Positions 2 through 63,971 of a DNA stretch of 64,000 bases are shown here, piece by piece. The stretch's first letter is position 1. Each line of letters begins with the position of its first letter. The notes below the pieces were generated by a model that was not told where the DNA came from, did not search any database, and saw nothing but the letters and a program-made list of their open reading frames with translations. A program made the position numbers and the translations under genes. The stretch covers positions 1 to 64,000 of the forward strand of contig JACTVG010000008.1 in assembly GCA_015660965.1 (NCBI GenBank), written 5' to 3'. Origin of the DNA: Methanoregulaceae archaeon. GTDB taxonomy: Archaea > Halobacteriota > Methanomicrobia > Methanomicrobiales > Methanospirillaceae.

Positions 2-493
2 ATTTCTCAACAGATAGAATTCACAAGGGATTACCAAGATATTGGTATCAATGCACCTCAGTGGTTTGATGTGAAAAAGATCATCGAGAATGCAATAAAA
101 ACTATTAAATTGGGTCCAGTTGTTGTCTCCATAGAGTTCGATAAACTTGAAATCTTTGCAGATCCCTTGCTTGAAAGGGTCTTTTTTAACCTAATTGAAA
201 ATGCACTAAGACATGGAAAAAAACTTACGAAGATTACATTTTCTTATAAAGAATCTAATGATAATCTGATATTAATCTGTATGGATGACGGTATTGGTAT
301 CCCCCCGGAAAACAAAGAGCTTATCTTCACAAGGGGTTTTGGCTCCAATTCGGGTGAGGGACTGTTTTTTGTGCATCAGCTCGTTGATCTGCAGGGCATG
401 TCAATTCGGGAGACCGGGACGTATGGGGAAGGAGCGCGGTTTGATATCCGTATTCCCCATGGAGCATTTCGCAAGACCGGATCCGGTTATTAA
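2..493 (+). CDS. Sensor histidine kinase, C-terminal part (5' end outside the window)
   Basis: This is the ATP-binding end of a signal-transducing histidine kinase. The reading frame is open from base 2, so the gene starts upstream and only its last 163 residues are present. The N box (NLIENALRHG), the G1 box (DDGIGIP) and a G2-like box (GEGLFFVHQL) identify a GHKL ATPase fold. The segment before the N box (EFTRDYQDIGINAPQW) is the usual linker between the dimerisation helices and the ATPase in the PAS-rich kinases of methanogens. The sensor domains and the phosphorylated histidine are not visible, so the signal is unknown. No response regulator follows it. Confidence 0.9.
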   Translation: MSQQIEFTRDYQDIGINAPQWFDVKKIIENAIKTIKLGPVVVSIEFDKLEIFADPLLERVFFNLIENALRHGKKLTKITFSYKESNDNLILICMDDGIGIPPENKELIFTRGFGSNSGEGLFFVHQLVDLQGMSIRETGTYGEGARFDIRIPHGAFRKTGSGY

Positions 494-61450: not shown

Positions 61451-61543
61451 TATGATCCAGGTAAAAAATAGATTATTTCTTCTGATTTTGGGATGACCAG
61501 CGTTGGCGATTTCCCATCCCGGTTGCAAGGTTCGGGTTCTGAA

Positions 61544-61632
61544 TCTTGCAGCGGTTTAGGTATCGCTCCCATGGTGCTCTTAGAGATTACCTAAACTATC
61601 GTTGTATTCTGTTATGATTATAGTGATTCAAT
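61544..61632 (-). repeat. LigB dioxygenase gene 5' end, remnant copy 1
   Basis: Direct repeat of 62335-62429; 71 bases (61562-61632) differ at one position. On the minus strand it is the promoter and first codons of a gene like the dioxygenase at 44821-45639, cut after about 10 codons. It forms the left border of the toxin-antitoxin segment. Confidence 0.75.
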
Positions 61633-61717
61633 GATTTTTTGTCCGTTGGTAACTTCATCCCCGCATCACCATGCATACACCAGTAGCCTGATAAGATCAT
61701 CAGTACTACTTGTATAT

Positions 61718-61948: not shown

Positions 61949-62218
61949 ATGTATACGGTCCATCTTACACGACGGGCACAGAAAGATCTCCTTGATCTCC
62001 CAAAGACACAGGCACACCGTATCCGCACAGCCTTAAACGATCTCGCCCAGGAGACTGAACCGTGGCTGCTCGTAAAAAAACTCCAGGGCCATGAAGAAGT
62101 CCCGCTTTATTCCTGCCGGGTCGGCCAGTACCGGATTATCCTGACCATCGATCACGGACATCTCGTAATCTTCGTCATTACGATCGAGCACCGCCGTTCC
62201 GTGTACCGTCATATTTAG
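61949..62218 (+). CDS. RelE/ParE family toxin
   Basis: An 89-residue toxin that probably cleaves mRNA on the ribosome. YTVHLTRRAQKDLLDLPKTQ, VKKLQGHEEVPLYSCRVGQY and RIILTIDHGHLVIFVITIEH are the RelE landmarks; the C-terminal HRRSVYRHI supplies the usual basic residues. Directly follows the antitoxin. Confidence 0.88.
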   Translation: MYTVHLTRRAQKDLLDLPKTQAHRIRTALNDLAQETEPWLLVKKLQGHEEVPLYSCRVGQYRIILTIDHGHLVIFVITIEHRRSVYRHI

Positions 62219-62305: not shown

Positions 62306-62429
62306 TAAACAGTACCGGCATCCGTTGTTCAGGAACTGAATCTTGCTTTTGTATAGAAATCGCTCCCATCGTGCTCTTAGAGATTACCTAAACTATCGTT
62401 GTATTCTGTTATGATTATAGTGATTCAAT
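62306..62429 (-). pseudogene. LigB dioxygenase gene 5' end, remnant copy 2
   Basis: On the minus strand this reads ISIQKQDSVPEQRMPVLFIG, matching SIPQKNSVPERRMPVLFVG of the intact gene at 45.6 kb, plus its upstream region shared with 61562-61632. The gene body is missing. It forms the right border of the toxin-antitoxin segment. Confidence 0.75.
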
Positions 62430-62450
62430 AATATTCTCTGCTACTAAAAA

Positions 62451-62475
62451 CTACTAATTTGTGCTAGATTAGTAG
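62451..62475. promoter_or_regulatory. Inverted repeat 1 upstream of fic
   Basis: CTACTAAT and ATTAGTAG flank a 9-base spacer containing TGTGC. Same 8-9-8 geometry as the next two sites, with different arms. Confidence 0.45.
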
Positions 62476-62537
62476 TTCGTCCAAAAGGAAATGAAATCGT
62501 GAATTGATAAAATTTCTTCACTGCCATCACAAATTTT

Positions 62538-62562
62538 CTGTAAATTGTGCAAAAATTTACAG
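62538..62562. promoter_or_regulatory. Inverted repeat 2 upstream of fic
   Basis: CTGTAAAT, spacer TGTGCAAAA, ATTTACAG; identical to the site at 62594, whose start lies 56 bases downstream. A probable operator for a dimeric regulator. Confidence 0.65.
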
Positions 62563-62593
62563 TACTTTTATCATGATTGCGATCTAACAGATT

Positions 62594-62618
62594 CTGTAAA
62601 TTGTGCAAAAATTTACAG
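62594..62618. promoter_or_regulatory. Inverted repeat 3 upstream of fic
   Basis: Exact copy of the 62538 site, ending 18 bases before ATG 62637. Binding here would block expression; the Fic protein has its own C-terminal winged helix and may be the regulator. Confidence 0.7.
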
Positions 62619-62636: not shown

Positions 62637-63971
62637 ATGAAGATTCCACAACGTCCACCTGATGGAAAAACGGCATGGGACGAGCATCAGAATGAGATAA
62701 ATGATTTGTTGAACGCATATTATAATACACTTCCCGAAGGATCGAAAGATATCCGGGAACTGGTACGAAAATATAACGATACCGAATATATCCATTGGGA
62801 TGAACTAAGGCGAAAAAAACTCCCGCGTGATCCAGTACTCATTTGGACAATCCTGAAAATTCTCAGGGAGAACGACTATATCAAGTTAGAGATAGGTAAA
62901 GTACTTTTCTTTTATATCGTCCTCCGCAAGTTTTTAAAACAGCTCCACCTCATCGACAAGGCATCACCTGCCTCGCTGGATCGGTTGCTTGACGGGTCTT
63001 TGGCAGTTGTGAATCGACAGCAATACCTCATCAGTTCGCTGATGGAAGAGGCGATCGCATCCAGTCAACTTGAAGGTGCGGCAACAACCCGTCAGATTGC
63101 TAAAAAGATTTTACGTGAAGGAAAAAAACCGAGGACTCACTCAGAACGGATGATCGTGAACAACTACCGGACTATCAACATGGTACGGGAGAAAAAAGAT
63201 CTTTCACTTACCCCAGATCTAATCCTTGAAATTCACCGTGAGATCACGCTGGGCACCCTTGAGGATGAAATGGATGAAAACCAGTTCCGCACCACCGATG
63301 ATATCGTTGTACGGGATAAAAGAGATCCCACGCTGATTTATTATCACCCACCGAAAGCGGCAGAGATCCCTGCGATGATCGAAGGGCTCTGCACTTTTGC
63401 CAATAGTGACGATGAATTCATTCACCCGATCCTAAAAGCGATCATTATTCATTTTCTCATCGGGTATATCCATCCATTTAATGACGGAAACGGGAGAACC
63501 GCACGAGCTCTCTTTTATTGGTATGTATTGAAAAACCGATACGATCTCTTCGAGTACTTGTCCATATCGAGAATTTTCGTGAATGCTCCTGCAAAGTATA
63601 CACAAGCGTACCTGTTGACGGAAACCGATTTCAACGATATGACCTATTTCATTGATTTCAATATCGGAATTATCAGCAGGGCAATGGATGATCTTAAACA
63701 GTATATTGAACGCAAGCAGCGCGAACAGAGAGAATCAATTAAAATTGTCGATCAGATACCAGATCTCTCATTCAGGCAAGCGGAGATCCTCAAGGATATT
63801 ATAAAACATCCGGATCGACCCTATAGCGTCGGTGAAATTGCCGGAAAATATAAAGTCTCTTTGCAGACAGCAAGATCTGATTTGCTTTTCCTCGAACAAA
63901 TCGGAAAAGTCAGAAAATTCAAAATGGGAAAGGGATATGCATTTATCAAAAAAAGAGATGAGGCGCATTGA
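62637..63971 (+). CDS. Fic family protein with C-terminal winged helix
   Basis: A 444-residue AMP-transferase (or related). The Fic core is HPFNDGNGRTARALFYW (H279 to R287), and SSQLEGAATT (S142 to E146-G147) is the N-terminal inhibitory motif that blocks ATP until displaced. The last 70 residues (FRQAEILKDIIKHPDRPYSV then GKYKVSLQTARSDLLFLEQI) form a winged helix, so it probably binds the repeated inverted sites upstream. It may modify a target protein or repress itself. GAGGGG precedes the ATG. Confidence 0.9.
   Translation: MKIPQRPPDGKTAWDEHQNEINDLLNAYYNTLPEGSKDIRELVRKYNDTEYIHWDELRRKKLPRDPVLIWTILKILRENDYIKLEIGKVLFFYIVLRKFLKQLHLIDKASPASLDRLLDGSLAVVNRQQYLISSLMEEAIASSQLEGAATTRQIAKKILREGKKPRTHSERMIVNNYRTINMVREKKDLSLTPDLILEIHREITLGTLEDEMDENQFRTTDDIVVRDKRDPTLIYYHPPKAAEIPAMIEGLCTFANSDDEFIHPILKAIIIHFLIGYIHPFNDGNGRTARALFYWYVLKNRYDLFEYLSISRIFVNAPAKYTQAYLLTETDFNDMTYFIDFNIGIISRAMDDLKQYIERKQREQRESIKIVDQIPDLSFRQAEILKDIIKHPDRPYSVGEIAGKYKVSLQTARSDLLFLEQIGKVRKFKMGKGYAFIKKRDEAH

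What the first reader, a model, noticed from the sequence alone, without database searches (positions are those of the whole stretch)
62451..62618. Three 25-base inverted repeats of identical geometry upstream of fic
Two are exact copies (CTGTAAAT-TGTGCAAAA-ATTTACAG) and a third has different arms but the same 8-9-8 layout with TGTGC in the spacer. Fic here ends in a winged helix, which suggests an autoregulated AMP-transferase, perhaps with activity tied to DNA binding.
Basis: partly seen in the sequence, partly recalled or inferred. Interest (0 to 1): 0.52.

Follow-up and report, generated by a model that had tools for sequence, protein, structure and literature searches.

The report
Self-repressing Fic enzyme with matched operators
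The repeated palindromes in front of this archaeal enzyme gene look like binding sites for the enzyme's own DNA-reading tail, because across many related archaea the palindrome changes in step with the few amino acids expected to read it.

Summary
Two identical 25-bp inverted repeats (62538-62562, 62594-62618) and a third with other arms (62451-62475) lie upstream of fic (62637-63971), in a 2.4-Mb draft archaeal genome whose family includes Methanoregula. They are not chance: of 90 relatives, 72 have such a palindrome within 200 bp upstream, against a mean of 10 in shuffles. Fic is a class II AMP-transferase with a C-terminal winged helix. The half-site frame CT-nnn-AAT is conserved, and the triplet nnn matches the three residues at the start of the recognition helix in 111 of 112 distinct proteins; one, L014, has no site. 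Two helix rules fixed on one order held in 13 of 13 proteins outside it. By this code the window's Fic (S408-L409-Q410) reads CT-GTA-AAT, the two identical copies. The third repeat (CT-ACT-AAT) is the site type of a sister Fic that this genome lacks, so it is probably non-cognate. Best explanation: direct autorepression, as shown for Yersinia CccR, but with a different, compact operator and in archaea. Coupling of DNA binding to AMPylation was not tested. About a quarter of such sites in 108 family genomes are not at fic.

The parts
62441..62475 (+). Distal class-B site: direct half-site CTACTAAA (62441-62448) plus inverted repeat CTACTAAT-TTGTGCTAG-ATTAGTAG (62451-62475); probably non-cognate for this Fic
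   Evidence: same arms upstream of the sister Fic subfamily
62538..62562 (+). Class-A operator, copy 1 (-99 from the start codon)
62594..62618 (+). Class-A operator, copy 2 (-43 from the start codon), identical to copy 1, 56 bp start to start
62565..62573 (+). CTTTTATCA between the two class-A sites, a possible TATA element (inference only)
   Evidence: read; not tested
62637..63971 (+). fic gene, 444 aa, class II Fic AMP-transferase with C-terminal winged helix
63060..63077 (+). Inhibitory motif SSQLEG (residues 142-147, glutamate E146)
63471..63497 (+). Catalytic Fic motif HPFNDGNGR (residues 279-287)
63771..63950 (+). Winged helix-turn-helix (residues 379-438; recognition helix 409-421, wing strands 425-430 and 433-438)
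63858..63866 (+). Codons for S408-L409-Q410, the residues that covary with the operator triplet

Best explanation
The two identical 25-bp inverted repeats are operators for the Fic protein they precede. The C-terminal winged helix, probably as a dimer with one subunit per arm, reads the half-site CT-GTA-AAT and represses its own promoter, keeping a potentially toxic AMP-transferase low; the SSQLEG motif gives a second, enzymatic restraint. Shown here: the sites, their conservation, a predicted winged helix, and covariation of the arm triplet with residues 408-410. Inferred: binding itself, dimer mode, repression rather than activation, and the purpose. The distal repeat is the operator type of a sister Fic class and is probably a relic of a replaced fic, or a site for another regulator.
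For: Position: sites lie mostly at -36 to -60 and -95 to -120 from fic starts; 72 of 90 genes have an 8-9-8 repeat with at least 7 of 8 pairs (shuffle mean 10.2, maximum 19 in 200 rounds), 32 of 90 a perfect one (mean 0.53). Strict motif test, same 90 genes: helix class A 16/16 with A arms, class C 16/16 with C arms, class B 53/53 with B arms (7 of these with an 8-bp spacer), L145 with D arms; L014 none; of 3 genes without the helix in the contig, 2 hit and 1 missed. Genes outside the order: the prior rules held 7/7 (C) and 6/6 (B); 11 proteins with the new helix AYD[TS]AR all have CT-ACC-AA, and 2 with SYATAR have CT-[AG]TT-AA. Among 112 distinct proteins the arm class needs at least 5 changes on a tree built without the winged helix and agrees with the helix class wherever a site was found; ACC arms arose twice, each time with an acidic residue at position 410 and alanine at 408. 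In the own genome class-A sites occur only here. The model gives a wing and a recognition helix starting at 409, and matches Fic-wHTH structures along 87-442.
Against: No binding or expression data. The five arm changes are too few for a phylogenetically controlled sign test (independent pairs 1-2 per class). Helix classes were defined after seeing the first 90 genes; only B and C were tested out of sample. Six of 21 class-A and 8 of 41 class-B sites in 108 genomes lack a recognisable fic. Of 20 upstreams of remote Fic and 8 bacterial plasmid or phage relatives, none has these operators.
Confidence: 0.87

Rival explanations
1. The repeats are operators of another, unlinked regulator that controls fic.
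For: Some sites of classes A and B lie away from any fic; the window's class-B repeat has no cognate Fic in G000.
Against: Arm class follows the recognition helix of the adjacent Fic in 111 of 112 proteins, with matched changes in separate lineages. An unlinked regulator would not be expected to change with each Fic.
Confidence: 0.07
2. The repeats act as RNA hairpins (terminator or leader structure) rather than as DNA sites.
For: The 25-mers fold at -7 and the 29-mer at -10.6 kcal/mol, better than all 200 shuffles; any inverted repeat does so. Some orphan class-A-like repeats are flanked by A and T runs like a two-way terminator.
Against: Arm sequence, not only pairing, is fixed within a class and tracks the wHTH; a direct half-site at 10-bp period recurs in other genes, which does not help a hairpin.
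Confidence: 0.04
3. The repeats belong to a small mobile or repeated element and came to fic by chance.
For: A noncoding segment of about 180 bp with class A and B sites (and in L109 a class C-like one) is repeated in G051, G052, G067 and G081 without fic.
Against: That element has no match in G000 at the call's threshold, and operators at fic occur in many genera with a class set by the protein.
Confidence: 0.02

Closest known systems
CccR of Yersinia pseudotuberculosis (PMC9755527, PDB 7XUX)
   Same: Class II Fic with C-terminal HTH; reported to repress its own promoter through an inverted repeat; structure matches along 87-439
   Different: CccR's operator is reported as two 10-bp arms 26 bp apart; here two complete 8-9-8 repeats 56 bp apart. 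CccR is a secreted T6SS effector; nothing here points to secretion
CbFic2 of Coxiella burnetii (PMC10628234, PDB 8CIL)
   Same: Class II Fic with wHTH; DNA binding reported to change enzyme activity
   Different: Studied with random DNA; no operator described in the passages seen
SoFic (PDB 3EQX, 3ZCN; PADLOC SoFic defence model)
   Same: Best PADLOC match, E 5.5e-43; fold match along 87-440
   Different: Far below the NCBIfam SoFic cut-off (54.5 of 550 bits); DNA binding of SoFic was said in 2023 not to have been shown
BlaI/MecI-type repressors (PDB 1P6R, 2P7C)
   Same: The profile's positions 360-426 match the penicillinase repressor wHTH, E 4.4e-4
   Different: Only the DNA-binding domain is shared

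Membership tests
Class II Fic AMP-transferase | Motif HPFx[D/E]GN[G/K]R | tested here: met
   HPFNDGNGR at 279-287; Pfam Fic 70.7 bits, cut-off 24
Class II Fic AMP-transferase | N-terminal inhibitory helix [S/T]xxxE[G/N] | tested here: met
   SSQLEG 142-147; the pattern is found in 88 of 90 relatives
Class II Fic AMP-transferase | AMPylation activity | not testable with these tools
   needs enzyme
Autorepressing Fic-wHTH (CccR kind) | C-terminal winged helix | tested here: met
   HTH_DeoR 21.4 bits, cut-off 21; model elements; matches covering the domain
Autorepressing Fic-wHTH (CccR kind) | Inverted repeat in own promoter region | tested here: met
Autorepressing Fic-wHTH (CccR kind) | Direct binding and repression | not testable with these tools
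   covariation only
Autorepressing Fic-wHTH (CccR kind) | Operator with 26-bp spacer between arms, as in CccR | tested here: not met
   9-bp spacer; so not the CccR operator type
SoFic equivalog (NCBIfam NF046030) | Score above the curated cut-off | tested here: not met
   54.5 against 550 bits

The most novel reading that the evidence does not exclude
Operator occupancy is an allosteric switch: bound to its paired operators the Fic dimer is held in one enzymatic state (inactive or de-AMPylating), and loss of occupancy, for instance by titration onto incoming DNA or onto operator clusters, releases AMPylation. The triplet-to-helix code then keeps sister Fic systems mutually insulated, and clusters of A, B and C sites without fic are decoys or sensors.
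Probability: 0.13. Interest if true: 0.78.

Novelty: new variant of a known kind. Interest (0 to 1): 0.52.

Why it matters
It turns a general suggestion (HTH domains fused to Fic may regulate fic; Kinch et al. 2009, PMC2686095, passage seen) into a testable protein-DNA code with over a hundred natural examples, gives a clear promoter and binding assay for archaeal Fic proteins related to a defence gene, and supplies natural, mutually distinct repressor-operator pairs. It would also allow a direct test of whether DNA binding gates AMPylation.

Tried and rejected
First class-B pattern used an 8-bp spacer and found 2 of 108 genomes; the true spacer is 9, while a basal clade does have 8. A spacer scan with perfect arms was uninformative because AT-rich palindromes nest at all odd spacers. 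Remote Fic: 20 upstreams fetched and scanned, no class A-D arms. Bacterial relatives: 8 loci, no such operators; L240 and L245 have palindromes of other sequence. The search for related loci: genome contigs gave 2 loci; viral contigs none with the single protein, 51 with the alignment, of which 11 were used for the fold. Independent-pair sign tests are underpowered. Mutual information ranks residue 410 second of all window columns, but other top columns (97, 109, 110) look like clade markers only. Literature: searches listed no archaeal Fic operator; the library lacks most subscription papers.

Rows dropped: L033 (same contig as L007); L142, L218, L219 (no usable start or N terminus), leaving 90; L143, L144, L213 lack the helix; one identical protein removed, leaving 112. 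In one search, with free triplets, 109 of 112 agree: exceptions are L014, one AYG protein (read as L176, which carries both ATC and ACT sites) and one AYQ protein scored AAT. In one search triplets were limited to the known classes and L176 was set to C by hand, giving 111 of 111 with a site.

Full report
What is there. The window is bases 1-64000 of a 71,661-base contig of a 2.43-Mb, 170-contig draft genome. Fic is encoded at 62637-63971. Upstream lie two identical 25-bp inverted repeats and a third with different arms. A ParE-like toxin gene (61949-62218) and a DUF7557 partner gene lie before them.

Protein. Pfam finds Fic and, just above cut-off, HTH_DeoR. The catalytic motif HPFNDGNGR and the inhibitory motif SSQLEG (E146) are intact. 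PADLOC's best match is the SoFic defence model, but the score is far below NCBIfam's SoFic cut-off. A 13-sequence model (mean pLDDT 83.9, pTM 0.79) shows a C-terminal winged helix with its recognition helix at 409-421. Structures aligned along 87-442, so through this domain, include Coxiella CbFic2, SoFic and CccR (7XUX) (7XUX identified).

Operators in relatives. In 108 family genomes the protein finds close relatives (58-63% identity), a second group (about 39-49%) and remote Fic. Close relatives carry CTG[TA]AAAT repeats, the second group mostly TACTAA repeats. Order-wide, 89 of 232 genomes have a match at E at most 1e-60. Of 90 fic upstreams, 72 have an 8-9-8 repeat with at least 7 of 8 pairs within 200 bp, against 10.2 on average in 200 dinucleotide shuffles. 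Where two sites occur they are mostly 55-60 or 64-72 bp apart; the window's class-A pair is 56 apart.

The code. Half-sites share CT-nnn-AAT. The triplet is GTA or GAA (class A), ACT (B), ATC (C), ACC (D), or ATT/GTT (E). Class follows the residues just before the conserved [TS]AR of the recognition helix (window 408-410): [SA][LM][PQ] to A, [VAT]Y[QE] to B, AY[AG] to C, AYD or ARE to D, SYA to E. With strict motifs 86 of 86 proteins in the four classes present in the order carry the matching site; L014 (ANATAR) has none. The rules for B and C were written before genomes outside the order were seen; there they held 13 of 13, while AYD (11) and SYA (2) were new helices with new, consistent arms. 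On a tree without the winged helix the arm class needs at least 5 changes and the helix class 6; class A is one clade, and D arises twice. In both D lineages residue 408 is alanine and 410 acidic; in the E pair, 408 changes from alanine to serine. This argues for direct reading of the triplet by residues 408 and 410, but few independent changes exist.

The third repeat. It is the class-B operator, with the extra direct half-site 10 bp upstream that many class-B promoters show. G000 (99.88% complete) has no class-B Fic: its only other match is a remote one downstream, G000:C105:65607-65840. The mixture is not unique: L017 and L032 (class-B Fic) have class-A-like distal repeats, L021 (class B) a class-C distal repeat, and L176 (class C) a class-B distal repeat. 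Replacement of one fic by another at the same place would explain this; so would regulation by something else.

Sites away from fic. CTGWAAAT-N9-ATTTWCAG has 21 sites in 16 of 108 genomes, none in the reversed control; 15 of 21 are within about 300 bp upstream of fic. TACTAAW-N9-WTTAGTA has 41 sites in 29 of 108 genomes, with 10 control matches by my tally; 33 of 41 are upstream of fic or a fic remnant. The rest include a repeated noncoding segment in G051, G067 and G081, also seen in G052. In G067 and G081 it lies next to a gene that I read as a type I restriction subunit from its sequence, not from a search. These show that the sites are not exclusive to fic.

Mechanism. The most likely mechanism is direct autorepression, as published for CccR (passages seen). 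Binding, repression and dimer mode are inferred. Whether DNA binding changes AMPylation is open: CbFic2 suggests yes (abstract and passages), CccR suggests independence. A possible TATA element lies between the two class-A sites; this is only a reading of the sequence. A SoFic paper (PMC12249575, passages) reports a small downstream antitoxin for E. coli SoFic; I did not look for one here.

Novelty. Fic-HTH autorepression is known, and regulation of fic by fused HTH domains was proposed in 2009 (passage). In the searches listed I found no description of this operator type, of operators for archaeal Fic, or of the covariation. I therefore call it a new variant of a known kind.

Noticed in passing
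61530-61638 and 62327-62435: A 109-bp direct repeat (88% identical) flanks the ParE-type toxin-antitoxin pair upstream of fic, as if the pair had been inserted by or with a duplication.
   Followed up: partly
L109:9900-10145, L073:1480-1735, L110:8470-8860, G052:C77:39589-39781: A repeated noncoding segment of about 180 bp with class-A and class-B sites (L109 also a class-C-like repeat) and no fic nearby, at two kinds of genomic place; in L110 it is partly duplicated in tandem.
   Followed up: partly
L118:4821-5083 and L119:5410-6160: Fic remnants that still keep class-B repeats upstream, evidence of fic gene loss with operators left behind.
   Followed up: partly
L074:4984-6057 (contig 64983-66056): A second, remote Fic gene about 1 kb downstream of the first; its upstream stretch shows no 25-bp repeat of these classes by eye.
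   Followed up: partly
L238, L242: Fic relatives on bacterial plasmids sit next to toxin-antitoxin genes (RelE/HigA; plasmid stabilization system), as in the window.
   Followed up: no
L221, L223, L231, L234: Several fic promoters outside the order carry direct half-sites at 10-bp period before the inverted one, suggesting that more than one dimer can bind.
   Followed up: no
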